Source: an uncultured Desulfovibrio sp. (lineage in GTDB: Bacteria > Desulfobacterota > Desulfovibrionia > Desulfovibrionales > Desulfovibrionaceae). From it: 63,390 nt of DNA. A model generated the notes under the pieces. That model worked only from the letters and a program-made list of their open reading frames with translations. It had not been told where the DNA came from and ran no database searches. The DNA is taken from contig NZ_CALUYG010000010.1 of NCBI RefSeq assembly GCF_944324935.1, positions 1 to 63,390 of the forward strand, in the 5' to 3' direction. The translations under genes were made by a program, and so were the position numbers. Positions 13,666 through 55,435 of this stretch are shown piece by piece (within the stretch, counting starts at the first letter, position 1; each line of letters begins with the position of its first letter).

Positions 13666-14562
13666 ATGCTCCTCGGCAAGTACCATATCGTCATTTTCCG
13701 CGAAGGACGCAGCGGCAGCCGCAATGTGCGGTTGCGGGGCTGGCTCGGTTTCGTCTCCTGCATCGTCGTGCTGGCGCTGGCGGGCTGCAATGTCTGGTTG
13801 TGGCAGGAATGGCTGAGGAGCCGCCACCTTGAGGAGTCCCTTGCCAATACCGAGCGTCGTCTGGAAGACCAGCGCCGACAGCTTTCCCTGCTGGGCGGCA
13901 AGCTCGGCGAGGTGACGCAGGATCTGCAGCGGGTGCGCAATTTCGACAGCAAGCTGCGCATTATGATGAATATGGAGCAGGACCCCGCCGAAGTGGGCGA
14001 CGATCAGGTGGGCAGCTTCGCCCATTCCTACCTGCCCATGCACCGGCAGGAGCTGGCCGCCCGCAGGATGCAGGATTTTCTGGACTCCCTTTCCGATGCC
14101 GTGCGCCTTGAGGAGGTGCGTCAACAGGATCTGCTCCATGCCCTGCGCGACAACCGCGACGCCCTGTCCACCCTGCCGACCATCTGGCCGGTGGTGGGCT
14201 TCGTCACGTCGGGCTTCGGCGCGCGTTCCGCGCCCTTCGGCGGGGGGCGGAGGCAGTTCCACAAGGGCCTCGACATCTCCAACCGCACGGGCACGCCCAT
14301 CATGGCCACCGCCCAGGGGACCGTGCTCAAGGCCGGGCATGACGGCGCCTACGGCCTCTGCGTGGAGATCAACCACGGCGGCGGCATCGTCACCAAGTAC
14401 GCGCATATGCAGCGCTTCGTCGTGCAGCCCGGCCAGTACGTCAAGCGCGGCGAGGTCATCGGCTATATCGGCATGACCGGCCGCACCACCGGCCCGCACC
14501 TGCATTACGAGGTCATGCTCAACGGCGTGCCCGTCAATCCCATGCGCTATATCCTCGAATAG
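13666..14562 (+). CDS. M23 family peptidase with coiled coil, membrane-anchored
   Basis: The 298-residue protein is probably a periplasmic murein endopeptidase or a regulator of one. It has one membrane segment (about 25-45), a coiled coil (50-95) and a C-terminal LytM/M23 domain. The zinc ligands are present: HKGLD (H199, D203), YAHM (H247) and PHLH (H278, H280), so it looks catalytically able. The order of membrane anchor, coiled coil and peptidase resembles shape- or division-related M23 proteins. Its TAG stop codon coincides with the first bases of a dispersed repeat element. Confidence 0.88.
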   Translation: MLLGKYHIVIFREGRSGSRNVRLRGWLGFVSCIVVLALAGCNVWLWQEWLRSRHLEESLANTERRLEDQRRQLSLLGGKLGEVTQDLQRVRNFDSKLRIMMNMEQDPAEVGDDQVGSFAHSYLPMHRQELAARRMQDFLDSLSDAVRLEEVRQQDLLHALRDNRDALSTLPTIWPVVGFVTSGFGARSAPFGGGRRQFHKGLDISNRTGTPIMATAQGTVLKAGHDGAYGLCVEINHGGGIVTKYAHMQRFVVQPGQYVKRGEVIGYIGMTGRTTGPHLHYEVMLNGVPVNPMRYILE

Positions 14563-14710
14563 AGCGTGCTCGCTGTGAAAAAGCGAAAACGCGAGGCGGC
14601 CGGCACAGCACCACCCGACAAAAACCACGCGGAAACACAGCGTTTTTTCCGTGAAACACCAGGCCGTGTGGCGTGAAGCGCGAAACGTTTCACACGGAAA
14701 ATGCTCGAGG
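14560..14710 (+). repeat. Dispersed repeat family 1, copy a (MITE-like)
   Basis: About 150 bp beginning TAGAGCGT and ending near AAAATGCTC. It shares with the copies at 42365 and 55291 the block ACGCGAGGCGGC-GGCACAGC, a GTGAAAAA loop inside a 5' hairpin, a T-rich second hairpin (GCGTTTTTTCCG) and a third inverted repeat (GTGTG...CACAC). It lies between the peptidase and the symporter. No protein-coding potential is evident. Confidence 0.75.
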
Positions 14711-14804
14711 GGCGACGTCGCGTTGCGCGCGTCGCCGCACTGCGCTATACAGGTCCCGGCCCGTACTCCCGCGGGCCCGAACATTCCATTTTCGGAGGTG
14801 CGGT

Positions 14805-16031
14805 ATGGCTGCCAAGGCAGGAGATTTCTCCCTGATCCTCAAATTGCTGGCCGGCATCGTCATCGGCGCGCTGGTCGGCACATACATCGGCAACAATGCC
14901 GACAGCTCGCTCAACCACATTATGGACGTGGTGGTGTCGCTGCGGCATATTTTCGGCCAGATCATCTTCTTCCTTGTGCCGCTGGTCATCGTCGGCTTCA
15001 TCACGCCGGCCATCGTGCGTCTGGGCCAGAACGCGAGCAGGATCCTCTTCACCGCCGTGGCGCTGGCCTATGTCTCTTCGCTGGGGGCGGCGCTCTTTTC
15101 CACCCTCTCCGGGTACGCCATCATCCCCCATCTTTCCGTGGTCAGCGAGACGGAACCCCTGCGGAAACTGCCGGAAATGGTCTTCCGCCTGGACATCCCG
15201 CCGCTGTTCAGCGTTATGAGCGCGCTGGTACTGGCCCTGCTGTTCGGCGTGGCCATCGCCTGGACCCGGTCCGAGACCCTGAGCCGTCTCTTCAGCGAGC
15301 TGGAACGCGTTATGAGCGCGCTGGTGGTGCGCATCATGATTCCCATCCTGCCCTTCTTCGTGGGGCTTTCCTTTCTCGGTCTCGCCTATGAAGGCTCCCT
15401 GAGCCTGCATCTGCCGGTCTTCGTCTCCATGGTGCTCATCGTCATCGTGGGCCATTTCATCTGGCTGGCCCTGCTCTACGGCATCGGCGGCCTGCTCTCC
15501 GGGCGCAATCCCTTTGAGGTCTTCCGGCACTATACGCCCGCCTACCTCACCGCCGTGGGGACCATGTCCAGCGCGGCCACCCTGCCCGTGGCCCTGGAAT
15601 GCGCCCGCAAGTCCCGCGTGCTGAGCCGCAACATGGTGGAATTCATGGTGCCGCTGGGCGCGACCGTCCACCTCTGCGGTTCCGTGCTCACGGAGACCTT
15701 CTTCTGCATGACCCTGCATCTCATGCTCTACGGCAGCCTGCCCAGCGTGGGCGTGATGCTGCTGTTCTGTGTGCTGCTGGGCATCTTCGCCGTGGGCGCG
15801 CCCGGCGTGCCCGGCGGTACGGTGGTGGCCTCGCTGGGCATCGTGACCGGCGTGCTGGGCTTTGATCAGAACGGCGTGGCCCTGCTTATCGCCATCTTCG
15901 CCCTGCAGGACAGCTTCGGCACCGCCTGCAACGTCACCGGCGACGGCGCGCTGACCCTCATGCTGGAAGGCCTGTTCAATCGTAACGGCGAGCTGGGCCC
16001 GTTGCAGAACGGCACCTCGGAGCAGGCATGA
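14805..16031 (+). CDS. Dicarboxylate/amino acid:cation symporter (DAACS family)
   Basis: The 408-residue inner-membrane protein is a glutamate-transporter-fold symporter that uses a sodium or proton gradient to import an acidic or small neutral amino acid. It has about eight hydrophobic helices. The family's substrate-site segments are seen in FMVPLGATVHLCGS and in NVTGDGALTL near the C-terminus. The ATG at 14805 has GGAGG upstream, so a longer upstream reading was dropped. It overlaps the cysteine desulfidase gene by 4 bases (ATGA), suggesting that it imports cysteine, serine or a related amino acid. That substrate is inference. Confidence 0.88.
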   Translation: MAAKAGDFSLILKLLAGIVIGALVGTYIGNNADSSLNHIMDVVVSLRHIFGQIIFFLVPLVIVGFITPAIVRLGQNASRILFTAVALAYVSSLGAALFSTLSGYAIIPHLSVVSETEPLRKLPEMVFRLDIPPLFSVMSALVLALLFGVAIAWTRSETLSRLFSELERVMSALVVRIMIPILPFFVGLSFLGLAYEGSLSLHLPVFVSMVLIVIVGHFIWLALLYGIGGLLSGRNPFEVFRHYTPAYLTAVGTMSSAATLPVALECARKSRVLSRNMVEFMVPLGATVHLCGSVLTETFFCMTLHLMLYGSLPSVGVMLLFCVLLGIFAVGAPGVPGGTVVASLGIVTGVLGFDQNGVALLIAIFALQDSFGTACNVTGDGALTLMLEGLFNRNGELGPLQNGTSEQA

Positions 16032-17317
16032 GTCTGACCCCTGAAGACCGTGCGGCCATCATCGGCCTGCTGCACAAGGAAGTCGTGCCCGCGCTGGGCT
16101 GCACGGAGCCCATTGCCGTGGCGCTCTGCGCGGCCCGCGCCGCCGAGGCCCTCGGCCGCCGGCCCCAGTCGCTGGATGTGGCCGTGAGCGCCAATCTGCT
16201 CAAGAACGGCATGGGCGTCATGGTGCCCGGCACCGGGGAGATGGGCCTTGCCGTGGCCGCCGCCGCCGGGGCGCTGGGCGGCAAAAGCGCCCTTGGCCTG
16301 GAATGCCTGCGCGATCTGGATGCCGCTGCCGCGGCAGCCGCCCGCGACATGGCCGCCGGCGAGGCCGTCGTCCTCCATCTGCCGGACAATGAGGACCTGC
16401 TCTACTGCCTCGTGACCGCCTCGGCCGATGGCCAAACCGCCGCCGCCGAACTGCGCGACAGCCACGACAACATCACCCGCGTCTGGCAGGACGGCGCGCT
16501 GATCAGCGACACGGCGACCGCTCCCGCCCGGCAGGACGACGCGACGGCCGTCTGGCCCCTGAGCATGGCCCGTATCGACGAATTCGCCCGTACCGCGCCG
16601 CTTGAGAACATCAGCTTCATCCTGGATGCCGCCCGCATGAACCGGCGCGTGGCCGAAGAAGGCCTGCATACGCAATACGGCCTCGGCGTGGGCAAGATGG
16701 TGGACGCCCAGATCCGCCGGCATGTGATCGCCGACGATCTGCCCACCTTCGCCGTCAAGCTCACCGCCGCCGCGGCCGACGCCCGCATGGCCGGCGTCAT
16801 GATGCCGGTGATGAGCAATTCCGGCAGCGGCAACCAGGGCATCACCTGCACCATGCCCGTGGTGGCCTGCGCCATACGGCAGGGCTGCGACGACGAACAG
16901 CTGACGCGCGCCCTCATCGTCAGCCATCTGACCTCCATCCATATCAAACACCACCTGGGCCGTCTCTCCGCCCACTGCGGGGCTATGGTGGCCGCAACCG
17001 CCGCCGCCTGCGGCATGGCCCTGCTCATGGGCGGCGGCCTGCCGGACATGGAACGCACCATCCGTAACATGGTCGGCAACGTGGCCGGCATGATCTGCGA
17101 CGGCGCCAAAAGCAGTTGCGCCCTCAAGGTCGCTACCGCCGTCAGCGCCGGCATACAGGCCGTGCTGCTGGCCCTCGACGGTATCGTCGTGCCCGGCAAC
17201 GAGGGCATCGTGGACGACGATATAGAATCCTGCATCGCCAACCTCGGCCGCCTCGGCTCCACCGGCATGAAGGAAGCCGACAAAGTCATCCTCGACATCA
17301 TGCTGCACAAAGCATGA
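16028..17317 (+). CDS. cyuA: L-cysteine desulfidase / serine dehydratase-alpha family protein (CyuA/YhaM)
   Basis: The 429-residue protein belongs to the UPF0597/CyuA family, iron-sulfur enzymes that split L-cysteine into pyruvate, ammonia and sulfide. The signature PALGCTEP is present with C25. Conserved cysteine-containing segments lie near the C-terminus (HCGAMVAATAAACG and SSCALKVATA). The length is normal. It is coupled to the upstream symporter by an ATGA overlap, so the pair probably takes up and degrades cysteine or serine. Activity on serine rather than cysteine cannot be excluded from sequence. Confidence 0.85.
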   Translation: MSLTPEDRAAIIGLLHKEVVPALGCTEPIAVALCAARAAEALGRRPQSLDVAVSANLLKNGMGVMVPGTGEMGLAVAAAAGALGGKSALGLECLRDLDAAAAAAARDMAAGEAVVLHLPDNEDLLYCLVTASADGQTAAAELRDSHDNITRVWQDGALISDTATAPARQDDATAVWPLSMARIDEFARTAPLENISFILDAARMNRRVAEEGLHTQYGLGVGKMVDAQIRRHVIADDLPTFAVKLTAAAADARMAGVMMPVMSNSGSGNQGITCTMPVVACAIRQGCDDEQLTRALIVSHLTSIHIKHHLGRLSAHCGAMVAATAAACGMALLMGGGLPDMERTIRNMVGNVAGMICDGAKSSCALKVATAVSAGIQAVLLALDGIVVPGNEGIVDDDIESCIANLGRLGSTGMKEADKVILDIMLHKA

Positions 17318-17365
17318 TGTTCGCGTGGCTGTTTGCGTTCTTTTTTCGGGGAGGGGAACCTTTGC

Positions 17366-17472
17366 GGCAGATTGTCAATTAAAAGTCAACAGAGGGCTTG
17401 CCAAAAAAAGAACGCCCCATGACAAGGGAAGACGGGGTCTTCTTTGTGTCAACTTTCATTTGACAATCTGCC
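17366..17472. repeat. Inverted-repeat element / long hairpin after cyuA
   Basis: GGCAGATTGTCAA (17366-17378) returns inverted at 17460-17472, and the match continues imperfectly for about 10 more bases on each side. An inner AGAA..CCCC/GGGG..TTCT pairing lies in the centre. The whole 107 bp could fold as one long hairpin. It may be a small non-autonomous element or an unusual transcript end. Confidence 0.55.
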
Positions 17473-17795
17473 TTACTGTTCTCGCTGTCCGTCAGCCTTT
17501 GCGATGACTTAGAAGGGGGCTGCTTTTTGTCCCAACCCCTTACCGGAGCGACGTCCTCCACCGTATGCGTATTCCGTCATCCTGCTTGCCGCCGTAAGCG
17601 CGTCATGGCGCGGAGGAGATCGCCGCGCCGGAGGCGCGGAAGCTCCGACGCCGCCCGGACGCTCGTCCCGGGAGAAGGCGGGACAGCGGGAGGGCGATGC
17701 CGTATGACGCGCGGCAGGGAGGAGAGCAGGGGAAGACAGTCGCCTGCCGGATGTTCGTCAGGGTTGGCTGTCCCAAGGCGGGGTTGGGGGTCGTA

Positions 17796-17828
17796 GGGGG
17801 TAAGGGGCCGCCGAGGCCCCTTATCCCC
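17796..17828. other. 14-bp hairpin in the cyuA-autotransporter gap
   Basis: TAAGGGGCC and its complement, extended by GGGG/CCCC, form a strong stem around GCCGA. The GGCGGGGTTGGGGGT just before it (from 17777) resembles the core of repeat family 2, so this may be a diverged copy. No gene is supported in 17318-17945. Confidence 0.4.
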
Positions 17829-17889
17829 TGCCGCCCGCCGCGCAGGCGACCCGGCCCGGACGCCGGGCTGAAGCCGCCATCCAGCGACA

Positions 17890-17918
17890 AAAACAAAAAA
17901 GGGGGGATCGCTCCCCCC
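17890..17918 (-). terminator. Rho-independent terminator after the autotransporter gene
   Basis: A 7-bp stem GGGGGGA/TCCCCCC with loop TCGC (17901-17918) is followed on the minus strand by TTTTTTGTTTTT. Confidence 0.85.
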
Positions 17919-17945
17919 AGGAAAAGGCCGTGATGGCGACAGGAC

Positions 17946-20900
17946 TCAAAATTCCCAGCCGAGACTCAGGCTGGCATTGACGGCGGCGGCATCCGTGCGA
18001 AAAAGCTCGCCGCCCACATCGACCTGAGTGAAGAAATTGCCGGGATGGCGCAGACGCAGACTCCCCTGAAGGAGCAGGGCATCACGCCCCACAAGCTCCG
18101 TGGCCGAGTCGAAACGATATGCGTCGTAGCCCTGGAACGCCGCCGTGGTGCGGAAGGTCCCGTCCAGCAGCTCATGCCGCCAGGCGGCAAGCACATCCAG
18201 GCCCAGCGCCGTGCCGTTTTCCAGCGTGACGTCCCAGCCGGCATGCGCGCCCAGGGAGAGCAGCAGGGAGTCGTACAGGCTGTCGTCCACCTGCAGGCGG
18301 CTGGCCTGTCCGTCCTTTTCCGTGAACCCGGGGCGGCGCAGGAAGGCGTATTCCAGCCAGCCCAGCGGCCCGGCACTGAGGGAGCCGCCTGCAAACCGCC
18401 GGCTCCAGTCCTTGCCGCCACCCAGCATGGCGCTGCCGGTGAGGCCTGTCCAGCGGCTTTCGTTGTGGCGAAGGTAGGCATCGCCCACGCTGACGTTGCG
18501 ATCCATCTCGCCTTGTTCCATACCCAGGCGGGCCTGTGCCGTGAGGTAGAGGCCGTCCCATTGTTCGGGGGCCAGCAGTCCCTGTACGCCGGCAAGGGCG
18601 GACTGCGTGTCGGCGGTGGCGTCATGCGCGCCATCGATGGTGGTACGGCGGGCGGCCAGGGCCAGATGGAATCCGAGGCTCAGGCCGGAAGCAAAGGAGC
18701 GGTCCATGCCGGCCAGCAGGCCGACGCCGGCGCTGTTCCAGCCGGAAGCGCCGCCGTGATCGCCCTGCCGGCTGGCGGCCCCGTAGGGAGTGGCCCAGGC
18801 TTGCCAGGGGCCCGCATCAGGGCTGTCCTGCCCGTTACCGGCGATGTGCGCCGCGTGCCGTGCCCGTTCGCCGGCCAGCATGCGCCGCAGCAGCAGAACG
18901 GTGAATTCGTTCTGCTGCCCCAGAGAGGCGCGGGCGGAGGCATCGTAGGCTTCCGGTCCGAGCTGGCGCAGCGCCCGGCGTACGCCGTCGCCGCTGCGGG
19001 GCGACCAGTCGATGGCGGCGAGCATCTGTCGCATGTCGCCCTGAGCCGCATCGGCAATGCCGCGGAGCGCGCGTCCCAGGGAGGCTGTGCCGGAGCTGTC
19101 GGCATACCGGCTGTAGGCGTCTGCGGCGCGGGAGACGGCCAACTGCGGCGCGGTGGGGGAGGACGGGAGCAGACTGAAGTCCAGCGTGGGCGACAGGTTG
19201 GCGGCAAGGCTGACGGAGGAGAAAGCGCCGTTGATGCTGGATGCCGTCACCGGTTGCGCCGGACTGATGAGGGCATTGCTGGCGTAGAAGTCCGGGAGGG
19301 GCCGCAAGGCCCAGTTTCCGGCCAGGGTGGCCGTTTCGGCGGTGATGCCGGCCACGCTGCCGTCGGCCATGACGCCGGTCTCCAGTGTGGCGCCGGCATT
19401 GTTGACGAAGGATGTGGCGACATCGGCGGCCGTGCCGGAGGGCGTCAAGCCGCCGAGGGCCAGATGGCCGAAGTTGGCAAGGCTGTAGACGGCAAGCGGC
19501 CCGGTGACGGAAAGGTGGCCTGCGGCAAGCGTCATGTCGATGCTGTCGGCCCCGTAGACGCCGCCGTTGAGGGTCATGTCGAAGGCGGCATCCGGGCTGA
19601 TGCCGGCGCTGCCGTCAGCCTGCGGCGCGAGGCCGAAGGTCAGCGCGGTGTGCAGATCAGTCGAGGGACCGGTATACTGGATGGCGGGGTTTTCGGGATC
19701 CCAGTCGGAAATGATGTCGCCAGTGATGGACGCCCCGGAAAGGACGTTGATCTTGCTGACGAGGGCGTTCTCCGAAATGTAGATGGCGGCCGCGCTGCCG
19801 TTCAGGCTGCCGCTCACGTCGAAGGTCGAGACCAGCGGGCCGTCGAGATTGAGGGGCAGGCCGGAGTCGTCAAGGTTGTTGCTGCTGCTCAAGGGTCGCG
19901 TATTCCCGGTCACCGACCAGATCCAGGAGCCGCGGTATTCCTCGGCATCACTGAGCAGATTGTGCCCGAAGTCGAAGCGGGCGGCCACACCGCCCGGGCC
20001 GGTGGCTTCGATGTCCCCGCCGCTGATGATCTTCTGATCCTTGCCGTAGGCCACCAGCAGCCCCGTACCGCCTGTGCCGTTGGCGCTCACGCGTACGCCG
20101 GGGGCTATGCGAAGGGTATTGTCGCTGCCGTCCACGCGTATGCCGGTCCCCGCGATGCCGTCGGCCAGCAGGTCGGCGACCTGGGTCACGTCGTTGTTCT
20201 TGCCGTAGATGTGCAGGCCGACGCCCAGGGTGGCCGTATTGCCTTGCCCGGTCAGATAGGCGGTGCCGTCGGCGTTGCGGGCAAAGTAGCCGTTGTGGTT
20301 GATGATGGTCCCGCCATCGCCGTAGACGGAAAAGCCGAAGAAGTTCCGGCGGTCAAGGCGGTAGCCCAGATCCTGCAGGGCGGCCAGCTCCGCCTCCATG
20401 AAGGTGGTGTAGTTGCGGTAATACTGGTGGCTCATCAGGCTGTGCTCAAGCTCGATGTGCGAGAGGTCCGCGTAATCCTCCTCATAGCCGTTGATGGGCA
20501 GGCCTTCACCGGCTCCCATGACGTCCGCCACATGTTCGCCCTGAAAGGTGACGCCGCTCTGCGCGCCTTCTCCCACGATGAAATCCGTGCCCGGCGTGCC
20601 TTTACCCTCCTTGACGATGCTCATGCCCGGCCTGAGCCAGGTGCCGTACCTGTCTCTGAGGTGCACATCCCATGTGCCCAGGCTTGGATTGTCCGTCGCC
20701 GAATTCTGGGACAATACGCCAAGGGCATGGCCGAGCTCATGGTAAAGCGTGGCGACCAGATTGAAGCCGGTGACGGAAGGCAGCGGCGAAAGCGTATCCT
20801 GGATGGCGAAGTCAAGCTTGCCGATGCGGATGACCCCCGGCAAGTCCGGCTCGACGCCGTTGATGATGGCATCCTCCACGCCGGTGGGGAAGATCCGCCC

Positions 20901-21308: not shown

Positions 21309-21563
21309 GGGTAGGCCTCCTCAATGTGGGACGACCTCCGCAGGCGCGGGGTGTGGGAAAACATGTTGATGTCGCTGCCGTTGAGTCCTGTTTCTGTCAT
21401 GCAGGCAAAAAAACGGCATGTTGCGGCCGGCACGGCGTCGTGCCGCTCTCCACGGCCCGTTTGGTCTAGCAAAAGAGCCCTCTGCCCACAAGAGAAAGCG
21501 TCGGTATTCGTTTGTGTCGGAAAAGGCTCCGGCCGATGCCGCGTACCAGTCCGGCCCGCAAGG

Positions 21564-21593
21564 AAAAGGGCCCGTCCGTCGGCGGGCCCTTTT
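21564..21593. terminator. Bidirectional terminator
   Basis: AAAAGGGCCCG (21564-21574) pairs perfectly with CGGGCCCTTTT (21583-21593), giving T-runs on both strands. It ends the minus-strand gene at 21686. The rest of 21309-21685 shows no gene I can support. Confidence 0.8.
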
Positions 21594-22030: not shown

Positions 22031-22052
22031 GGTATGCCTCCTTGTTGAAAAA

Positions 22053-22176: not shown

Positions 22177-22191
22177 GGAAGCGGGCGGATC

Positions 22192-28122: not shown

Positions 28123-28500
28123 TCCGCAGGGCGGACGAGGGGACGGACGCGCCGCGCGGAGCCGCGCCGGGGCCGTCTCCTCGAAAGACGTCGTCACGGC
28201 GTCGTCCGGCGGGGAGGCGGCTTTTGACGGGCGGCCCTCCCGCCCGCCGTCCTCGCGGGATATTCGCCGGGGGCTGCCGGGCCGGGCAGGAGACTTTCCC
28301 TTTGCGCCTGACGGAAAATATGCTAGAGCGGTCCCACTGTGAAAGGAGCCGCGCCGGACTGGCGCAGGCGCGCAATGCCCGCCTCCGCCGTCCGGCGGGA
28401 GGCGGCAAAACGGCCGCCGTGCCGGCGTCCCGCGCCCGTCGCGCGCGTCCCGCGAAGACGCGCTGACGGACGGGGAACGTCGCGCGGGGGGAGAGGTGCT

Positions 28501-36015: not shown

Positions 36016-36297
36016 ATGAGCCTGGAGAACGCGAGCAGGCTGACCGTCCTGGGGACTGATATCTTCTTTCGTCCCGGCGCGGATCTGGAAAAGTTCCGGG
36101 CTACCATCGCACTGGTGGAAGAGCGGTTCGCCGATTTGAAACTGAGGTCCCACGGCGCGCAGACCAAAGATATTCTGCTGACGTACTTGGCCCTTGGGCT
36201 GGCGGAAGATTTACTGCAAGCGCAGAAAAAGCAGGAGGATGTACAGGATCGCATCCAGAACCTGCTTACGCAAATAGAAGAGTCGCAACCTCTTTAA
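36016..36297 (+). CDS. zapA: Cell division protein ZapA
   Basis: The 93-residue protein stabilises FtsZ bundles. It has an N-terminal ZapA fold (RLTVLGTDIFFRPGADLEKFR) and a C-terminal dimerising coiled coil (LAEDLLQAQKKQEDVQDRIQNLL). The ATG at 36016 is 9 bases after GGAG. The ATG at 36010 is in frame but too close to that site. The gene lies just before 6S RNA, the classic zapA-ssrS order. Confidence 0.9.
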   Translation: MSLENASRLTVLGTDIFFRPGADLEKFRATIALVEERFADLKLRSHGAQTKDILLTYLALGLAEDLLQAQKKQEDVQDRIQNLLTQIEESQPL

Positions 36298-36470
36298 CTC
36301 CCTGGGGTGTGCGTGATTTATGTCTCGGTGCTGACCTTACAAGCATACATAAGGGAGCCGTATCCGCTACCGGTGAGCATGCCCGCAAGGGAAGCCTGAT
36401 GGGAGCGTCTCGGCGCCCACCTGGGAAACCAGGTTCTGCACCGAAGACATGACACGGCATCCTGGGGCAT
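36296..36470 (+). ncRNA. ssrS: 6S RNA
   Basis: The stretch after zapA matches 6S RNA, which binds sigma-70 RNA polymerase by mimicking an open promoter. The conserved GGTGAGCATGC-CCGC and GGGAAGCCT are seen at about 36372-36396. The closing stem is clear: ATGTCT-CGGTGC (36320-36331) pairs with GCACCG-A-AGACAT (36438-36450). The apical ACCTGG...CCAGGT hairpin (36419-36434) corresponds to the CCTTGAACCAAGG part of the E. coli RNA. The exact ends are estimated. Confidence 0.88.
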
Positions 36471-36608
36471 TTGCCCCGGAGACCTCCGGGTGTGCCTGTC
36501 CTGCGCCGTTCGGGCGCGTCTCTACCTGCCCCCGCCGTGGTTACACGCTGACCGCTGCGCCTCTTGGTGCGGCGTTGGGCGGCCTGGCCGCCATTCCGGG
36601 GGGAAATT

Positions 36609-41451: not shown

Positions 41452-41533
41452 GCAGGGGGAAGGGGGACCCCCCGCCTCGCGCGGGTGGGGTCCCCCTTCC
41501 CCCTGCACCCCCAACCCCTCCCCGGCGCGCTTT
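41452..41533 (-). repeat. G-rich repeat family 2, copy a
   Basis: A perfect 20-bp inverted repeat (41452-41471 with 41487-41506, 15-base loop) is joined on its right to the core AAAGCGCGCCGGGGAGGGG read on the minus strand (41507-41533). It lies downstream of nrdJ. A shorter AAAAGGGGGACCC motif precedes it near 41400. Confidence 0.7.
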
Positions 41534-41806: not shown

Positions 41807-41866
41807 AGGGATTCCTTCCCCTCAAAGTAACGCATCTTGATTTCAACTCGTTCCAAAGGAAGACGC

Positions 41867-42367
41867 ATGAAATGGATGACACATCAGGCGGCGGCGGTCG
41901 GCATGGCGTTGGTGCTGCATTTGCCGGTGGAGGGGGTGCTTGCCTCCTGTTTTGGAGCCGTGCTGCCGGACATGCTGGACCAGCGAGCCTCCCGGATGAC
42001 GCGCAATCCGCAGCGGACCTTCAACCGCATCCACCGGGGGGTGACGCACTGGTTCGGCTGGTGGCTGGGGCTTTTTCTGGTGGCGGGCCTGTTGCCGTTG
42101 CCGCCACACTGGCGTGCGGTAGTGCTGGGGGTGGGCTTTGGCGCGCTGAGCCACATCGTGCTGGATATGCTCAATCCCAGTGGCGTGCCGCTGCTGCCCT
42201 TCAGCCGCAAGAACCGTCTGTCCCTGCGGCTTTGCTCCACGGGCAGCGTCGGGGAGTACATCTTTCTGGCGGCCATGCTGGGCTGTTTCGTGCTCTTTCT
42301 GGGGCCGCGTTTCTGGGACATCCTGCATCAGGCCGAACGCTGGGCCGGGCACGCGCTGCGCTTTTAG
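41867..42367 (+). CDS. YdjM-like inner-membrane metal-dependent hydrolase family protein
   Basis: The 166-residue membrane protein resembles the YdjM/DUF457 family. It has an N-terminal MTHQAAAVGMAL segment, a GAVLPDMLDQ motif, an RIHRGVTHWFGWW motif with conserved His, and SHIVLDMLNPSGVPLLPF, all typical. About four membrane helices are seen. The biochemical activity of the family is not established. AAAGGAAG precedes the ATG. The TAG stop coincides with the left end of a repeat element. Confidence 0.85.
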   Translation: MKWMTHQAAAVGMALVLHLPVEGVLASCFGAVLPDMLDQRASRMTRNPQRTFNRIHRGVTHWFGWWLGLFLVAGLLPLPPHWRAVVLGVGFGALSHIVLDMLNPSGVPLLPFSRKNRLSLRLCSTGSVGEYIFLAAMLGCFVLFLGPRFWDILHQAERWAGHALRF

Positions 42368-42513
42368 GGCGTTTTATCTTTGAAAAAGATAAAACGCGAG
42401 GCGGCGGCACAGCGCCGTCCGGCCAAAAGTGAGCGGAAAAACGGCGTTTTTTCCGCGAAGCGCCAAGTCGTATGGTTTGAAACGCCAAGCGTTTCAAACA
42501 GAAAATGCCCAAG
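42365..42513 (+). repeat. Dispersed repeat family 1, copy b (MITE-like)
   Basis: About 149 bp with near-matching ends GGGCGTTTT and AAAATGCCC. It holds three hairpins: CGTTTTATCTT/AAGATAAAACG (42370-42396), GCGGAAAAA...TTTTTTCCGC (42433-42456), and GTTTGAAACGC/GCGTTTCAAAC near 42475-42499. The central ACGCGAGGCGGC-GGCACAGC block is shared with the other two copies. Confidence 0.78.
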
Positions 42514-42614: not shown

Positions 42615-42696
42615 AAAAGCGCGCTGGGGAAGGGATGGGGGGCTTGGGGGGAAGGGGAACCCCTCCCGCGCCGGCGGAGGGGTTCCCCTTCCCCCC
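42615..42696 (+). repeat. G-rich repeat family 2, copy b
   Basis: The core AAAAGCGCGCTGGGGAAGGG (from 42615) is followed by ATGGGGGGCTT and a perfect 21-bp inverted repeat (42646-42666 with 42676-42696, 9-base loop). AAAAAAAC follows. It has no coding potential I trust. Confidence 0.78.
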
Positions 42697-48015: not shown

Positions 48016-48189
48016 GCTGGCTCCCGAAGCGGATGGGACGCTCCGTGCGGTTCCCTTTGGTTGTGCCGTCTCCCGCCGGCGCGGCCGCACGGAAAGCCGC
48101 ACGCAGGGCGCGGCTGTGCGGTCCGCCGGGGCGGCGGCCGTCATGACGTCGGCGCAGCGGCGCGCCCCCGATGGGGCGATGCCCTGCCT

Positions 48190-48236
48190 GTGTTATAAGG
48201 TGACGATTTTCCGCAAAGACGCGCGCAAAGTCAAGG
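48190..48236 (-). promoter_or_regulatory. Possible ileS promoter region
   Basis: On the minus strand TATAAC lies near 48193 with a weak TCTTTG 16 bases upstream, and a TTGACT occurs further up (about 48230). I cannot decide which hexamers are used. The rest of 48016-48291 holds no gene. Confidence 0.35.
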
Positions 48237-48291
48237 GATGGCGGCAGGCGGGCAGGGCGCGCGGCCTTGCCGGTCCTCCCTGGCCGACCGG

Positions 48292-49140: not shown

Positions 49141-49158
49141 GGCTGCGGACGGGCCCCG

Positions 49159-49572
49159 CTACTCGTTCCATTCAAGATAGGTGGCCGTCTGCCGTCCCTT
49201 TTCGGAAACGGAGACGCTGACCACGGCTACCTTGCGGGCCTGCGGGTCGGAGTGCCGCCGCAGCCGCTCGGCCACGCTCCGCCAGATGTGGCGGGCCAGG
49301 TTCTCCGACGAGGGGTTGACGCTGTCAAAGGGCGGCGTCTCGTTGAGCACGCCGTGATCCAGCGTATCCAGCGTGTCCTTGAGCACCTGCCGCAGCACCT
49401 TGAAATCCAGCAGCAGTTCCGTGTCCGGCAGCAGCTCTTCGCCCTGGACGGTGACTTCCACGCCGAAATTGTGTCCGTGCAGATGTTCGCACTTGCCCTG
49501 GTAGTGCCGCAGGGCATGGGCGGAGCAGAATTCGTCCCGCACGGTGAGACGCCAGCATTTTTTCTTGTTCAT
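49159..49572 (-). CDS. queD: 6-carboxy-tetrahydropterin synthase QueD
   Basis: The 137-residue enzyme makes 6-carboxy-5,6,7,8-tetrahydropterin in queuosine synthesis. Zinc ligands and the catalytic Cys are in FCSAHAL and GKCEHLHGHNF; the LLDFKVLRQVLKD and LDHGVLNE segments are typical. The start at 49572 overlaps the stop of a 52-residue membrane-protein gene (ATGA) and has no ribosome binding site of its own, so it depends on that gene for translation. Confidence 0.92.
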   Translation of the reverse strand: MNKKKCWRLTVRDEFCSAHALRHYQGKCEHLHGHNFGVEVTVQGEELLPDTELLLDFKVLRQVLKDTLDTLDHGVLNETPPFDSVNPSSENLARHIWRSVAERLRRHSDPQARKVAVVSVSVSEKGRQTATYLEWNE

Positions 49573-49727
49573 CGGAGGATCCAGTACATGCAGATGGCCG
49601 CAATGATCATAACGATGATGGCCAGAATGATACGCGCATTCTGATCCCATTCATAACTTGCGTCGCTTTCAGGGTCATCGTCCAGCGGCGGGGAGACAAT
49701 GTTCTGCAACCATGAGAACAGGGACAT
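49569..49727 (-). CDS. Small single-pass membrane protein, 52 residues
   Basis: This short gene begins MSLFSWLQNIVSPPLDDDPE, has an acidic middle, and ends with a membrane helix (IILAIIVMIIAAICMYWIL-R). GAAGGAG lies 6 bases before the ATG at 49727, and the TGA overlaps the queD ATG. The function is unknown. The fixed coupling to queD and the good ribosome binding site argue that it is real. Confidence 0.8.
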   Translation of the reverse strand: MSLFSWLQNIVSPPLDDDPESDASYEWDQNARIILAIIVMIIAAICMYWILR

Positions 49728-49812
49728 GGCAGGCTCCTTCGGCTAAAGGGGGGGATTTCGTCAAAACGTCGTCCTGCGAAAACCGCATTCAAAAATCGTA
49801 CCCTGCGGCCCA

Positions 49813-52800
49813 TCACGACGCCCAGGCCGCCAGCGCCCTGTCCAGTTCGGGGCCGGGAGCCACCCGGAATTGCGGGCCAAGGCGGAGGAGGCAGCGGTAA
49901 CCGTCCAGCAGGACGACGGCCTGCGCTTCCACCTCGCCGGGGTGGGCGGCCAGGATGTTTTTCAGGCTCAGGATATGCTCGCGGCCCAGCCGTCCGGCCG
50001 GGATACGCACGCAGATGGGCTGATCGCTCTGGCCGCAGGCCTCGCGCAAAAGCTGCACGCTCTGGCCAAGCAGCTTGACGTCGCGGGGGGCCTCCTCGCC
50101 GTCCTCGTCGCTGTCGCGCGCGCTGTCCTCCTGCTTGTCCAGGCGGGCCCGCAGGCAGAGGGGCTGCTCGCTCTTCAGCAGTTCGCGCGCCTCGGCATAG
50201 GGCTTGGGGAAGAAGGTCACTTCGGCATGCCCGGTGAGATCCTCGATGCTCACGAAGGCCATGCGTTCGCCCTTGGACTTGGTGATGACCTCCTTGATGC
50301 CGGTGACCAGCGCCGGGCAGGAGATCTCCGCGCCGGGGAAGAGGTCGCGCGCGTCCTCCAGCGTGCTCAGGCCGATACGGCGGATCTCGCGGCTGAAGGG
50401 CTGGAGAGGATGGCTCGTGAGGAAGAAGCCCAGCGCTTCCTTTTCGAAGCGCAGCTTTTCGTCGTTGTCCCATTCGGGCATGGCGGCCTCTGGGCAGTCC
50501 ATGCCGATGCCGGGCAGGGGGGCGGCCTCGGTGCGGGGGGCCAGCGCCAGCAGGGAGACCTGATTGGATTCCTTTTCCCTGGCCTTTTTCTGGGCCCGGG
50601 CCACCACCCCGTCCAGGGTGGCGATCAGGGCGGCGCGGCTCACGCCGAGGCAGTCGCAGGCCCCGCCCTTGATGAGCGATTCCAGTACGCGCTTGGTGAC
50701 CTTGCGCAGGTTGACCCGGCAGCAGAGGTCCAGCAGGGAGGCGTACGCGCCGCCTTCGGCGCGGGCTTCCATAATCTCGCGGATGGCTTCGTCCCCCACG
50801 TTCTTGATGCCGCCAAGGCCGAAGACCACCTTGCCGTCCTTGGCCGAGAAGGCCCGCTGGCTGTCGTTGATGGACGGTTGCACCACGTCGATGCCCATGT
50901 CCTTGCAGCAGGAGACGTACTTGAGCAGCTTGTCCTGATTGCCCATTTCCGACGTCATGAGCGCGGCCATGAATTCCACCTTGTGGTGCACCTTGAGATA
51001 GGCCGTGAAATAGGACACCAGCGCGTAGGCGGCCGAATGGGACTTGTTGAAGCCGTATGCCGCGAATTTTTCCATGAGGTCGAAGATCTCGTCGGCCTTT
51101 TCCCGGCCGATGCCGTTGGCCCTGGCCCCGTCCACGAACTTGACGCGCTCCTTGGCCATGGCCTCGGCCTTCTTCTTGCCCATGGCCCGTCGCAGCAGGT
51201 CGGCGCCGCCGAGGGTGTAGCTGGCGATGATCTGGGCGATCTGCATGACCTGCTCCTGATAGACGATGACGCCGTAGGTGTCCCGCAGACAGTCGCTCAG
51301 GGAGTCGTGCGGATAGACGACCGGCACCTGCCCGTGCTTGCGCTTGATGAATTCGTCCACCATGCCCGAGCCCAGCGGGCCGGGACGGTAGAGGGCCAGC
51401 ATGGCGATGACGTCCTCGAAGCAGGAGGGCTTGAGCATACGCAGATACTGCCGCATGCCCGAACTTTCCACCTGGAAGACGCCGTCCGTGTCCCCGCGCG
51501 AATAGAGCTCATAGGTGGCGGCGTCGGTCAGCGGCAGATTGTCGAGGTCCGGTGGCGTCTGTCCCTGGAGGCTGATGTTGTCCAGCGTGTCCTGGATGAG
51601 CGTCATGGTCTTGAGGCCGAGGAAGTCGAACTTCACAAGGCCGGTCTGCTCGGTCATGGGCCCGTCGAACTGGGTGACGAGTTCGCCGCGTTTGCCCGTA
51701 TAGAGCGGCAGGTATTCGTCCATGGACTTGTCCGACACCACGAGCCCCGCCGCATGGGTGGAGGCGTGCCGCGCGAGCCCCTCCAGCCGCCGGGCCGTAT
51801 CCAGCAGCTTGGTCACCTGCGGGTCGCTGTCGTAGAGCTTTCGCAGTTCCGGTTCGGCATCCAGCGCCTTGTCGATGGTCATCTTGAGGTCGTCGGGCAC
51901 CATCTTGGCGATGCGGTCGGTCTCGGCGAAGCTCATGCCCAGGGCCCGGCCCACGTCGCGCACCACGCCCTTGGCCTTCATGGTGCCGAAGGTGGTGATC
52001 TGCGCCACGCTGTCCTTGCCGTAGGTATCGACCATGTGCTGGATGACTTCCACGCGGCGGCGTTCGCAGAAGTCCACATCAATATCGGGCAGGCTCACGC
52101 GTTCGGCATTGAGGAAGCGCTCGAACAGCAGGTTGTAGGGGATGGGGTCGAGGTTGGTGATGCGCAACGCCCAGGCCACGAGGCTGCCCGCCGCCGAACC
52201 GCGGCCCGGCCCCACGGGGATGCCGTGGTCCTTGGCCCAGTTGATGAATTCCTGTACGATAAGGAAATAGCCCGGGAAGCCCATGTTGCAGATGACGTCC
52301 AGCTCGTAGCGCAGGCGCTGGCGGTAGGCGTCCGCATCGAGGGAGGCCGGGTCGGGGTGTTTCTGCAGGCGCTGTTCCAGGCCCTCCTCGGCCAGCCGCC
52401 GGAATTCCGATTCCAGCGTGGCCCCTTCGGGCAGGGGGTAGACCGGGAAATAATGGTGGCCGAAATCCAGCTCCACATTGCACTGTTCGGCGATGCGCAT
52501 GGTATTGGCCAGCGCTTCCGGCACATGGCTGAAGGCGGCCTCCATCTCCTCGGCGCTCTTGTAATAAAGTTCCGTGGTCTCGAAGCGCATGTGCCTGGGA
52601 TCGTCCAGCGTGGTCTGCGTCTGGATGCAGAGCAGCACCTCGTGGGCTTCCACGTCGTCGGCATTGAGGTAGTGGCAGTCGTTGGTGGCCACCAGCGGCA
52701 GGTGGAGCTGTTCGGCGATCTCCATGAGGCCGTCGTTGACCGTCACCTGTTCCTGCAGGCCGTTGGATTGCAGCTCCAGATAGAAGCGGCCGGGGTAGAT

Positions 52801-53289
52801 GTCCGCGTATTCCCGGGCCAGCGCGCGGGCCTTGTCCATGTCGCCGGCCTGGATGGCGCGCGGCACTTCGCCCGCGATGCAGGCCGAAAGGCAGATGAGC
52901 CCCTCGGCATACTGGCGCAGCAGGGCCTTGTCCACGCGCGGCTTGTAGTGGAAGCCCTCCAGAAAGCCCTTGGTCACCAGCTTGACGAGGTTGTGATAGC
53001 CCGTCTCGTTCTGGGCCAGCAGGATGAGATGGTTGCGCCTGCGGGCCAGCTCGGACGTCTTGTCGAAATGGTCATGGCAGACGTAGACCTCGCAGCCGAA
53101 GATGGGCTTGATGCCGACCTCGGCGCACTGCTTGGCGAAGTAGGCCGCGCCGAACATGTTGCCGTGATCGGTGATGGCACAGGCGGGCATGCCGAAATCC
53201 TTGGCGCGGTTGCACAGGTCCTTGAGGCGGATGGCCCCGTCCAGCAGGCTGTATTCGGTATGGCAGTGCAGATGCACGAAATCGGACAT
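49813..53289 (-). CDS. dnaE: DNA polymerase III alpha subunit
   Basis: The 1158-residue replicative polymerase begins with a PHP domain (FVHLHCHTEYSLLDGAI) and continues with the polymerase core including the catalytic PDIDVDFCE. It goes on to the HhH and OB-fold regions (SCPALVTGIKEVITK, HAEVTFFPKPY). The length matches the DnaE class, not PolC. The ATG at 53289 has AGGAAT upstream; 35 upstream in-frame codons were dropped. No terminator is clear before the next genes. An operator-like palindrome lies about 140 bases upstream. Confidence 0.97.
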   Translation of the reverse strand: MSDFVHLHCHTEYSLLDGAIRLKDLCNRAKDFGMPACAITDHGNMFGAAYFAKQCAEVGIKPIFGCEVYVCHDHFDKTSELARRRNHLILLAQNETGYHNLVKLVTKGFLEGFHYKPRVDKALLRQYAEGLICLSACIAGEVPRAIQAGDMDKARALAREYADIYPGRFYLELQSNGLQEQVTVNDGLMEIAEQLHLPLVATNDCHYLNADDVEAHEVLLCIQTQTTLDDPRHMRFETTELYYKSAEEMEAAFSHVPEALANTMRIAEQCNVELDFGHHYFPVYPLPEGATLESEFRRLAEEGLEQRLQKHPDPASLDADAYRQRLRYELDVICNMGFPGYFLIVQEFINWAKDHGIPVGPGRGSAAGSLVAWALRITNLDPIPYNLLFERFLNAERVSLPDIDVDFCERRRVEVIQHMVDTYGKDSVAQITTFGTMKAKGVVRDVGRALGMSFAETDRIAKMVPDDLKMTIDKALDAEPELRKLYDSDPQVTKLLDTARRLEGLARHASTHAAGLVVSDKSMDEYLPLYTGKRGELVTQFDGPMTEQTGLVKFDFLGLKTMTLIQDTLDNISLQGQTPPDLDNLPLTDAATYELYSRGDTDGVFQVESSGMRQYLRMLKPSCFEDVIAMLALYRPGPLGSGMVDEFIKRKHGQVPVVYPHDSLSDCLRDTYGVIVYQEQVMQIAQIIASYTLGGADLLRRAMGKKKAEAMAKERVKFVDGARANGIGREKADEIFDLMEKFAAYGFNKSHSAAYALVSYFTAYLKVHHKVEFMAALMTSEMGNQDKLLKYVSCCKDMGIDVVQPSINDSQRAFSAKDGKVVFGLGGIKNVGDEAIREIMEARAEGGAYASLLDLCCRVNLRKVTKRVLESLIKGGACDCLGVSRAALIATLDGVVARAQKKAREKESNQVSLLALAPRTEAAPLPGIGMDCPEAAMPEWDNDEKLRFEKEALGFFLTSHPLQPFSREIRRIGLSTLEDARDLFPGAEISCPALVTGIKEVITKSKGERMAFVSIEDLTGHAEVTFFPKPYAEARELLKSEQPLCLRARLDKQEDSARDSDEDGEEAPRDVKLLGQSVQLLREACGQSDQPICVRIPAGRLGREHILSLKNILAAHPGEVEAQAVVLLDGYRCLLRLGPQFRVAPGPELDRALAAWAS

Positions 53290-53431
53290 GCGGCATTCCT
53301 CGGCCGGGCGTTCCCGGCGGCTGGCGATACGGAAAAGGGGGCGCGGGTTCATGCGCCGGACAGCAAGGATAGCATGCCTCGTCCCGAGGCTCAAGGCACG
53401 GGAAAAGCGGTCCGACCGCCGGAAAAAACTT

Positions 53432-53457
53432 TACAAAACCACTTTACTAGTTTTGTA
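53432..53457. promoter_or_regulatory. Operator-like palindrome between dnaE and the PH-like gene
   Basis: TACAAAAC-N10-GTTTTGTA, an 8-bp perfect inverted repeat with 10-base spacing, in an AT-rich island between two divergent genes. It could bind a dimeric regulator of one or both. Confidence 0.45.
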
Positions 53458-53517
53458 GCTTATACGACTTTTCTCTCCGAAGATGACGGCACATCCGCCG
53501 CCGAGGAAGCGCCTGTC

Positions 53518-54024
53518 GTGCCGGCCAAGACCGCGCCATGCTCCGAGGGAGTCGCGGCATGTGAGGACGCGCCTGCCACGACGGCCGAAACGCCGCTTGC
53601 GGCCTACCGCTTCATGGATGAGCGGGTATGGGGCTGGACGCTCGTGCTGGGGAGCCTCGCGCTCTTCTTTTTCGCATTGTACCATGGCACGGGGATCATG
53701 TCGGGGAGCATACTTTGTTTCATCATGGGCATCATCAGGCTCGTCCAGGCCCAGCAGCGTTTGGGCAGGCATGCCTGCATCCTGTACCGGGATCATCTGG
53801 AGTGTGTCTCCGGCGCTTGGACAAGCGATCTTGTCAGCATCCCCTACGCCAGCATCCGCGAGGCCAGATATTCAAGCTCCAAGCTGCGGCTCCTGCTTGC
53901 TTCCGGGGACGGGACGACCAGGTTCAACGTCTATTTTTATGTGTTGGAGGGCGACAAGCGCGATGAGGCCCGCGCCGTCCTGCGGGACAAGATGCGTGAG
54001 CTGGGCGTGCTGCGCGAAGACTGA
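53518..54024 (+). CDS. PH-like domain membrane protein, hypothetical
   Basis: The protein has two membrane helices (VWGWTLVLGSLALFFFALYHG and SGSILCFIMGIIRLV) followed by a small beta-rich domain (ACILYRDHLECVSGAW...VSIPYASIREARYSSSKL...FNVYFYVLEGDKRDE), like bacterial PH (bPH) membrane proteins. The start is uncertain: GTG at 53518 has GAGGAAG upstream and gives 168 residues; ATG at 53614 gives 136 without a ribosome binding site. It is divergent from dnaE. No function is known. Confidence 0.6.
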   Translation: MPAKTAPCSEGVAACEDAPATTAETPLAAYRFMDERVWGWTLVLGSLALFFFALYHGTGIMSGSILCFIMGIIRLVQAQQRLGRHACILYRDHLECVSGAWTSDLVSIPYASIREARYSSSKLRLLLASGDGTTRFNVYFYVLEGDKRDEARAVLRDKMRELGVLRED

Positions 54025-54148
54025 CGGACGGCATCCGGTGGGGGCGGCGCGGCGTTTGCGCCTTTCGCGAACGTGCCTGCGGCGGCTCCTGCGCTATGGC
54101 GGGGCCGCCGGCGGATAACGGCCCTGCCACAATCCGGGAGCGGGGCGC

Positions 54149-55282
54149 TCATGCCGTCTCCGTCCGCCCGTCGGGCGTGAACGTGCCGCAGCGTGCCACA
54201 TTGAGCAGACCGCCGGCAGCGCGCTCCGCTGCGCCTTCAATACGGCAGTCGCCGAAAAAGGCGGGCAGCAGGGCGCGCAGCATCGCGTCGTATCCCTGCC
54301 AGTAGTACGGACTGCCCATACGTTTAACCATATCGGGGAGCGTCTTGTTGTCGAAGGGCCCTTCCAGCTTGCGGGCGATATGGAAGTCGGGCCGGGGGCT
54401 GTTCGGCGGTATGCGTTGCCTCCAGGTCGCAAAGTCGTTCCTGTCCTGGCGGGAGCTCTGGTGATAGGTAAGGAAGGGCAGCACGCGCAGCCGGAGCATG
54501 AGAGAGGTCGTGAACACGCCGGAAAGGGGAGAGGTCACGATGCAGTCCGCCGCAAATCGCATGGCGTTGGGAGAGATGTGGACGGTGTCCCTGATGGCGT
54601 GGACGCCGGGATGTCCGGTCAGCCCGTCATAGTCCGGGTGGTCGTAGAAGGGCTTGAAAAGGACCGTGCGGGCAGCGGCCAGCTGCCGTACGGCATCGAC
54701 CTGTTCCTGCGGGTTGTCGTTCAGCCCGCCGCAATAGAGGACCAGTTCCCTGTCCGCCGGTATCCGTGCATCGAGATGCTCCTCCAGGAGCTGGCGCAGC
54801 CGCTCCCGCGGAAGCCGTCGTCCGTCTTCCCAGGGGCCGAGCTGGTAGGTCCCGGCGGGATGGATCTCCCGCACAAGCTTCCCGTTTGCAGGCGCTTCCG
54901 GCTGTTTCCCCAGATTGATCTGTTTTGCATACTGACAAAGGATATGGGTGAAGGGGGCATCGTCCGGCATGAAGACGAACGCCGAGGCATGCAGCATCAG
55001 GATACGGCGATCGGCCAGCGAGGCCAGGGCCGGGTGGCGTTCCAGATCCTGCTGACCGGCAACTCCTACCGCGCCATACCTTCCCCCGGCCTGCCCCACG
55101 GGAAAGAACTGGTAGCCGGTGTCCGCGAGTTCCCGGTAGGCGGGACAGGTAGCTTTGCCTTCCAGCAGAAGGCCGTCCGGGACGAAGATGTCCACGGCGT
55201 CGACCGGCATGTGACCGATGACATGCTGGAAATACAACAGACTGCGCGACGCGAGGTAAAGGGCGAGGCGGTGTGCGTTCAT
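54149..55282 (-). CDS. Hypothetical protein, glycerophosphotransferase-like C-terminus
   Basis: I do not recognise this 377-residue protein with certainty. The part from about residue 245 (LFKPFYDHPDYD...ISPNAMRFAADCIVTSPLSGVFTTSLMLRLRVLPFLTY) has the layout of CDP-glycerol glycerophosphotransferases and related glycan transferases. There, an Asp/Ser-rich loop follows a predicted strand. No membrane helix or signal is seen. The ATG at 55282 lies directly behind a copy of repeat family 1. With the similar protein at 57025 and the nucleotidyltransferase at 58952 it suggests a surface-glycan role. Confidence 0.65.
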   Translation of the reverse strand: MNAHRLALYLASRSLLYFQHVIGHMPVDAVDIFVPDGLLLEGKATCPAYRELADTGYQFFPVGQAGGRYGAVGVAGQQDLERHPALASLADRRILMLHASAFVFMPDDAPFTHILCQYAKQINLGKQPEAPANGKLVREIHPAGTYQLGPWEDGRRLPRERLRQLLEEHLDARIPADRELVLYCGGLNDNPQEQVDAVRQLAAARTVLFKPFYDHPDYDGLTGHPGVHAIRDTVHISPNAMRFAADCIVTSPLSGVFTTSLMLRLRVLPFLTYHQSSRQDRNDFATWRQRIPPNSPRPDFHIARKLEGPFDNKTLPDMVKRMGSPYYWQGYDAMLRALLPAFFGDCRIEGAAERAAGGLLNVARCGTFTPDGRTETA

Positions 55283-55290
55283 GGTGTCCT

Positions 55291-55435
55291 TAGAGCGTTT
55301 CCCATTTGAAAAGTTTTGTGTCCCGATCTGTACGGCCTGGCGTTTCGCGGAAAAAAACGCGGCTTTTCGCTCAGTTCGGGCCGGGCGGCGCTGTGCAGCG
55401 CCTCGCGTCATGTTTTTTCACCGGCAAGACGCTCT
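55291..55435 (-). repeat. Dispersed repeat family 1, copy c (MITE-like)
   Basis: About 145 bp with terminal inverted repeats AGAGCGT...ACGCTCT. Read on the minus strand it shows the GTGAAAAAA loop, ACGCGAGGCG-TGCACAGCGCC block and GCGTTTTTTTCCGCG hairpin in the same order as copies at 14560 and 42365. It lies between two divergent genes. The remaining 55436-55620 shows no gene. Confidence 0.75.

What the first reader, a model, noticed from the sequence alone, without database searches (positions are those of the whole stretch)
14560..55435. Dispersed ~145-150 bp structured repeat in three copies (14560, 42365, 55291)
Three intergenic copies share ordered blocks: a 5' hairpin with a GTGAAAA-like loop, ACGCGAGGCG, GCACAGC, a T-rich hairpin and terminal inverted repeats (AGAGCGT/ACGCTCT). 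The 5' stem is kept although its sequence differs: CGTTTTATCTT/AAGATAAAACG in one copy, GCGT..CGCT/AGCG..ACGC in another, GCGTC/GACGC in the third. Preserved pairing suggests selection on structure, as in a non-autonomous mobile element or a structured RNA family. A short degenerate fragment may lie near 28322.
Basis: seen in the sequence. Interest (0 to 1): 0.75.

Follow-up and report, generated by a model that had tools for sequence, protein, structure and literature searches.

The report
Short jumping-DNA repeat ending bacterial genes
The three repeats are copies of a small parasitic DNA element of gut Desulfovibrio bacteria; it inserts at the letters TA, very likely with a borrowed enzyme, and when it lands in a gene's stop signal it supplies a new one, so it looks like a new member of a known kind with an unusual habit.

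Summary
The three copies (14560-14708 +, 42365-42512 +, 55291-55436 -) belong to a ~148-bp family with 95 matches (E<=0.001) in this genome. It is a MITE of the IS630 (Tc1/mariner-like) type. Both ends read TAGAGC...; the outer TA is the duplicated target: tandem copies share one TA and empty sites in other genomes have one. An IS630-family element in a genus-mate has the same 21-bp left end as the commonest MITE variant. No catalytic IS630 transposase was found in this genome, whose copies are diverged.

"Preserved pairing, so selection on structure" is mostly not supported: stems evolve no slower than loops, private mutations are hardly compensated, and the commonest recent variant matches the IS end but pairs perfectly in 0 of 48 copies.

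Most striking is the stop codon. Targets favour YTAR, which includes TAA and TAG; the element begins TAG, and copies 1 and 2 supply their genes' stops. In this genome 13 of 19 left ends that keep TAG close a long stop-free frame (2 of 10 right ends). Closest in kind: pneumococcal RUP.

The parts
14560..14708 (+). MITE copy 1, full length; its first three bases TAG are the stop codon of the M23-peptidase gene 13666-14562
   Evidence: model score 134.9 bits; BLAST query that found 40 places in the genome; ORF end at 14562; Peptidase_M23; sister locus in G182 ends in TAA with no element, G183 keeps only both ends of the element
42365..42512 (+). MITE copy 2, best preserved of the three; its first three bases TAG are the stop codon of the YdjM-like gene 41837-42367
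   Evidence: model score 169.9 bits; ORF end at 42367; PF04307 YdjM; shared with sister G183 and absent in G182
55291..55436 (-). MITE copy 3, minus strand; its right end (GCTCTA) lies 8 bases upstream of an ATG (55282) of the minus-strand ORF 54149-55411, next to AGGA
   Evidence: model score 107.5 bits; sequence; ORF list. That this ATG is the real start and AAGGA its ribosome-binding site is read by eye; no family matched the protein
42365..42385 (+). left terminal inverted repeat of copy 2 (TAGGGCGTTTTATCTTTGAAA), 18 of 21 bases as in the IS630-family element L165 (counted by eye)
   Evidence: alignment A1; IS end in L165
42369..42397 (+). subterminal hairpin H1 (left end and its inverted copy)
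42400..42419 (+). hairpin H2 around GCACAGC
42433..42456 (+). A/T-rich hairpin H3
42475..42499 (+). subterminal hairpin H4 near the right end
42501..42512 (+). right terminal inverted repeat of copy 2, changed (GAAAATGCCCAA against GAAAATGCTCTA)
13666..14562 (+). M23-peptidase gene whose stop codon is the TAG of copy 1
41837..42367 (+). YdjM-like gene whose stop codon is the TAG of copy 2

Best explanation
[quoted passage not shown] It codes for no protein of its own; its ~21-bp ends (TAGAGC[A/G]TTT...TTTGAAA) mimic the ends of an IS630-family insertion sequence, whose transposase moves it in trans into TA dinucleotides, best in YTAR context, duplicating the TA. Insertions in genes are purged, so copies pile up between genes and in stop codons: TAA and TAG both fit YTAR, and since the element has G after the TA, landing in such a stop codon leaves TAG. 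In this genome the family looks fossil (transposase not found, copies diverged), while two window copies still serve as the stop codons of their genes. Shown: family, ends, TA duplication, empty sites, matching IS end, in-frame stops. Inferred: mobilisation in trans by that kind of transposase, purging, and loss of the transposase here rather than a gap in the assembly.
For: 95 matches at E<=0.001 in the genome; 8 in sister G182, 150 of 150 scored in sister G183. Tandem copies share a single TA. Junction search: of 223 copies, 44 gave a hit across the joined flanks, many of them tandem neighbours or copies inside other repeats; five are between different named genomes at unique-looking sites, with one TA in the empty allele: L058/L070, L147/L138 twice, L069/L153, L095/L112. 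Window copy 1: G182 has TAA and no element, G183 only both ends of it; copy 2: present in G183, absent in G182. IS630-family element in G022 (L165 1396-2390; catalytic ORF above the NF033545 and DDE_3 cut-offs) has the left end TAGAGCGTTTCAACTTTGAAA, the commonest MITE left end (31 of 184 named copies), and right end TAGAGCAATTCAACTTTGAAA. Nearest-neighbour identity: own median 84%, 0 of 56 at >=95%; named 94%, 58 of 194 at >=97%; G183/G182 loci 9 of 36 at >=97%, best pair 100%. Target context Y before, R after the TA (87% and 80% of 76 sites).
Against: No transposition was observed. Of the IS630-type loci whose ends I looked at only L165 in G022 matches closely; other IS630-family genes in G020 and G022 (L308, L312) have no such ends. 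G183, with at least 150 copies and some near-identical ones, has no catalytic IS630 match, so the enzyme there is unknown or unassembled. Homology between MITE and IS is limited to the ends. Of 184 named full-length copies checked, 90 have TA at both ends, 71 at one, 23 at neither. A sixth inter-genome junction, L120/L113, has CA instead of TA in the empty allele.
Confidence: 0.93

Rival explanations
1. A structured RNA family (riboswitch, sRNA or 3'-UTR element) kept by selection on its folded RNA, spread by duplication.
For: Copies fold better than shuffles (z -1.9, -5.4, -2.9); covariation above shuffles; more G-T than A-C over all alleles (154 to 108 in H1-H4 of own copies, 280 to 166 of named copies); hairpins with strongly conserved loops.
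Against: No Rfam family at gathering threshold in the window but 6S RNA at another place; scattered sites that differ between sister species; stems no slower than loops; private one-sided stem changes in H1-H4: 13 G-T against 16 A-C (own) and 22 against 41 (named); both-sides private changes 0 in own and 7 in named copies, 3 of them standard pairs; commonest variant never perfectly paired.
Confidence: 0.04
2. Not exclusive of the best explanation: a MITE whose subterminal hairpins are themselves needed for transposition (for example extra transposase sites or single-strand folding), so that pairing is kept in mobile lineages only.
For: Both ends have the same design, TAGAGC end plus a palindrome containing TTTGAAA; double changes follow sublineages; head GCATTTTGC keeps a perfect arm in 11 of 15 named copies.
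Against: No such hairpin is seen at the left end of the IS itself (by eye); the most frequent recent head (GCGTTTCAA) keeps the arm of another head in 37 of 48 copies. Template-switch repair of near-palindromes could give the same pattern (recalled, not tested).
Confidence: 0.3
3. A REP/BIME-type element mobilised by a RAYT (Y1) transposase.
For: Palindromic, mostly intergenic, many copies.
Against: Length ~148 bp, inverted terminal repeats and TA duplication do not fit; the PF01797 family was not searched.
Confidence: 0.01

Closest known systems
RUP (repeat unit of pneumococcus) with IS630-Spn1
   Same: Short non-coding repeat (107 bp), about 110 copies, ends like those of an IS630-family element, TA at the target; proposed to be moved in trans (passages of PMC2229807, and PMC3049150)
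   Different: Other host phylum; the present one is 148 bp and supplies stop codons. I saw only passages of these papers, none of them reporting stop-codon supply by RUP; sequences were not compared
Correia/NEMIS elements of Neisseria
   Same: 107-155 bp, terminal inverted repeats, TA at the ends (passages of PMC2229807)
   Different: Different host; sequences were not compared; the passages seen name no moving enzyme
Nezha MITE of cyanobacteria
   Same: MITE proposed to be moved by ISNpu3-like elements with like ends (one passage of PMC3049150)
   Different: Different host; details not read
ISY100 (IS630 / Tc1-mariner)
   Same: TA target duplication; transposase binds the 24-bp ends and needs no other protein in vitro; mini-elements with 30 bp of each end move (passages of PMC2170065)
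   Different: Autonomous element, not a MITE

Membership tests
MITE | short (<~200 bp), no transposase gene, many copies | tested here: met
   148 bp, 95 matches in the genome
MITE | terminal inverted repeats | tested here: met
   TAGAGCRTTTT / GAAAATGCTCTA in the consensus
MITE | target-site duplication and empty sites | tested here: met
   TA; five inter-genome empty sites (one further junction without TA) and the loci of window copies 1 and 2
MITE | ends match an autonomous element | tested here: met
   21 of 21 bases between the commonest named left end and the IS630-family element in G022; window copy 2 has 18 of 21; no such element found in the window's own genome
IS630 (Tc1/mariner-like) group | TA target duplicated | tested here: met
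IS630 (Tc1/mariner-like) group | moved by an IS630-family transposase | not testable with these tools
   only end identity; no transposition assay
IS630 (Tc1/mariner-like) group | partner encodes an IS630-family transposase | tested here: met
   L165 catalytic ORF: NF033545 123 bits against cut-off 100, DDE_3 116.1 against 28.6
RUP | sequence relation to RUP / IS630-Spn1 ends | not tested
   no RUP sequence was fetched
structured RNA family (Rfam) | match to a curated family | tested here: not met
   at gathering threshold only 6S RNA elsewhere in the window
structured RNA family | stems conserved in resident copies beyond loops, private changes compensated | tested here: not met
   covariation between sublineages does exist
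REP/BIME | RAYT transposase | not tested
   PF01797 was not searched

The most novel reading that the evidence does not exclude
A MITE adapted to stop codons: its YTAR target preference and its TAG ends let it use gene ends as safe havens, leaving an intact stop whenever it lands in TAA or TAG, and a sizeable share of old copies has become the permanent stop codon plus hairpin-rich 3' end of the host gene.
Probability: 0.3. Interest if true: 0.55.

Novelty: new member of a known kind. Interest (0 to 1): 0.4.

Why it matters
It identifies an abundant class of repeats in gut Desulfovibrio genomes that Rfam does not cover at its thresholds, gives a case in which covarying hairpins come from mobile sublineages rather than from RNA function, and offers a clear, testable case of mobile DNA rebuilding host stop codons and 3' ends.

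Tried and rejected
Rfam scan of the window at gathering threshold: only 6S RNA. One copy against phages, plasmids and E. coli genomes: no match. IS5-type (PF13586) transposases of G000 as partners: six matches, with no TAGAGCRTTTT-like end at up to one mismatch in those six loci apart from one in L187 that belongs to a neighbouring MITE; one search compares the six loci. N-terminal IS630-like matches in G183 (L310) and G000 (L311, L315): below cut-off, no matching ends; the second half of the L310 ORF shows no recognisable catalytic part by eye. Internal homology of MITE and IS: only an 11-base near-match (E 2.5), not counted. The fragment near 28322: not supported. RNAalifold's own consensus (17 pairs) was less complete than the structure I set by hand on one row, which is therefore favoured in the slid control.

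Stop-codon statistics: first version, 201 ends, 12 tandem ends dropped; own and named apart; ends with under 310 bp of flank dropped, ends without TAG and tandem ends left out of the frame counts; frames are stop-free stretches, not proven genes; gene caller of my own, probably missing genes: 24 of 152 elements at a called stop, against 4.1% of stop-plus-intergenic TAs; 62 deduplicated sites with TA at both ends and long flanks; the target profile was made symmetrical by adding reverse complements: 23 sites at in-frame stops of >=150 open codons, against 10.3% expected with target weighting. The expectation includes coding TAs, which selection purges; allowing for that (9078 of 16208 TAs coding) I estimate roughly 20-25%, so stop targeting beyond YTAR plus purging is not proven.

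Literature searches that listed no Desulfovibrio MITE of this kind: (open-licence PMC papers only); for stop codons supplied by MITEs: listings and abstracts only.
Full report
Observation. The three copies are real and full length: window 42365-42512 + (169.9 bits), 14560-14708 + (134.9) and 55291-55436 - (107.5) in a covariance-model search of the window, and they match one another by plain BLAST. The model R1 was built from 32 full-length copies of this genome, the three included (alignment A1; 41 copies were in the first alignment, nine partial or poorly aligned ones were left out). It finds 95 matches at E<=0.001 in the 2.7-Mb genome (150 candidates scored), 8 in G182, and in G183 all 150 candidates that were scored. 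In a family-wide draw 20 of 119 genomes match (12 of 44 genera; many at low scores, probably related but distinct repeats); in a phylum-wide draw 3 of 198, one genus. BLAST of one copy matches 11 of 61 relatives, own genome included, all in one genus.

Anatomy. The consensus is 148 bp: TAGAGC[A/G]TTTT, a palindrome that contains TTTGAAA (H1), a hairpin around GCACAGC (H2), an A/T-rich hairpin (H3), a second subterminal palindrome (H4), and GAAAATGCTCTA. Both ends thus carry the same signal. Tandem copies overlap in one TA, which marks the outer TA as the target.

Empty sites. I joined the flanks of 223 copies with one TA and searched all loci held: 44 copies had a hit across the junction. Many of these are tandem neighbours or copies inside other repeats. 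Five are between different named genomes and show one TA in the empty allele: L058/L070, L147/L138 (two sites), L069/L153, L095/L112; a sixth, L120/L113, has CA there. In L069/L153 the empty allele reads TTAATG where the filled one has the element at the TA. For the window: at copy 1, sister G182 ends the same gene in TAA and has no element, and G183 has TAGAGCGT directly followed by AATGCTCCAG, that is, both ends of the element without its middle; at copy 2, G183 has the element at the same place, G182 has none and ends the gene in TAG. Most simply, both insertions predate the split from G183 and postdate the split from G182.

Partner. An IS630-family element lies in G022 (L165 1396-2390): left end TAGAGCGTTTCAACTTTGAAA, right end TAGAGCAATTCAACTTTGAAA, transposase in two overlapping frames, catalytic part above the NF033545 and DDE_3 cut-offs. 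Its left end is the commonest left end of the named MITE copies, 31 of 184. An IS630 element in G025 has similar ends (L171); IS630-family genes in G020 and G022 at L308 and L312 have none that match. In the window's genome no DDE_3 match was found, none to the L168 transposase, and only two short N-terminal matches under the cut-off to NF033545. The own copies are old: median nearest-neighbour identity 84%, 0 of 56 at 95% or more; in the named loci 58 of 194 reach 97%; in the G183/G182 loci, the best-scoring ones, 9 of 36 do and the best pair is identical. G183 therefore seems to have been recently active although no catalytic IS630 gene was found there: the enzyme may be unassembled or different. 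This is the main gap.

Structure. The pairs covary more than shuffled ones (41 double-change cells against 17.4 +/- 3.3; score 0.202 against 0.153 +/- 0.007; but 13 pairs with a double change against 10.7, reached by 94 of 500 shuffles). It follows sublineages. Taking as private the alleles seen in at most 2 of 61 own copies or 3% of 230 named copies, one-sided private stem changes in H1-H4 are 13 G-T, 16 A-C, 2 standard pairs and 53 others in own copies, and 22 G-T, 41 A-C, 11 standard pairs and 136 others in named copies; both-sides private changes number 0 and 7, three of the seven standard pairs. Paired columns differ by 13.1%, unpaired by 15.5% (p=0.54; named 9.1% and 9.4%, p=0.13). Of 195 named copies with both H1 arms 33 pair perfectly, of 47 own copies 9; of the 48 named copies with the IS-like head none does, and 37 keep the arm that fits another head. 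There the ends follow the transposase, not the hairpin. Counter-evidence: over all alleles G-T exceeds A-C (own 154 to 108, named 280 to 166 in H1-H4), and head GCATTTTGC keeps its perfect arm in 11 of 15 named copies.

Stop codons. ORFs 13666-14562 and 41837-42367 end exactly at the TAG of copies 1 and 2. In the own genome, of 103 ends with enough flank 29 keep TAG; of the 19 left ones 13 close a stop-free stretch of at least 150 codons in frame against 2 and 1 in the other frames, of the 10 right ones 2 against 2 and 1. In the named loci the left ends give 32, 5 and 8 of 109, the right ends 23, 11 and 11 of 103. The target context is Y before and R after the TA (87% and 80% of 76 sites), also in the 32 sites away from stops, so TAA and TAG are favoured targets in either direction. 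At 23 of 62 sites an end closes a frame of at least 150 codons, against 10.3% expected with target weighting over all TAs, by my estimate 20-25% once purged coding sites are allowed for. With my own gene caller 24 of 152 elements sit at a called stop and 1 of 152 inside a called gene. Preference for YTAR, purging from genes and retention of used stops together could explain most or all of this.

Verdict. An IS630-type MITE, close in kind to RUP of the pneumococcus (passages read). I found no report of it in Desulfovibrio (searches, open-licence papers only). The new part is the stop-codon habit, which is supported as a pattern; that it is an adaptation is not shown.

Noticed in passing
L246 about 1483-1500 (G183, locus orthologous to window copy 1): A relic of the element: both ends joined without the middle, the TAG still being the gene's stop codon. 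Suggests loss by internal deletion.
   Followed up: partly
window 42616-42634, 41515-41533, 58823-58841: Another dispersed repeat, AAAGCGCGCTGGGGAAGGG and reverse, three places in the window at up to 3 mismatches against 0.03 expected; several MITE copies elsewhere lie next to it.
   Followed up: partly
L074, L109, L142, L149, L159, L185, L291: A further repeat, AATTTGTGTTAACAGGCCC, exact in 7 of 319 loci; variants lie beside several MITE insertions.
   Followed up: no
window 36296-36472: 6S RNA gene (RF00013, 105.7 bits).
   Followed up: no
L171 1164-1312 (G025): A different short element with like ends (TAGAGCATTTTGCTTTTGAAA ... TTTTTCAAAGGCAATTCGCTCTA) at whose TAG an ORF of 386 aa ends (6-1166, M23-peptidase-like by eye); the habit may be shared by several such families (ends read by eye).
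   Followed up: no
L310 1009-1956 minus (G183): ORF with an IS630-type DNA-binding half but no recognisable catalytic half, beside a regulator-like ORF, no matching ends: perhaps a domesticated or decayed transposase.
   Followed up: partly
window 55282-55295: Copy 3 ends so close to a possible start codon that its terminal TA adjoins the presumed ribosome-binding site (by eye).
   Followed up: no
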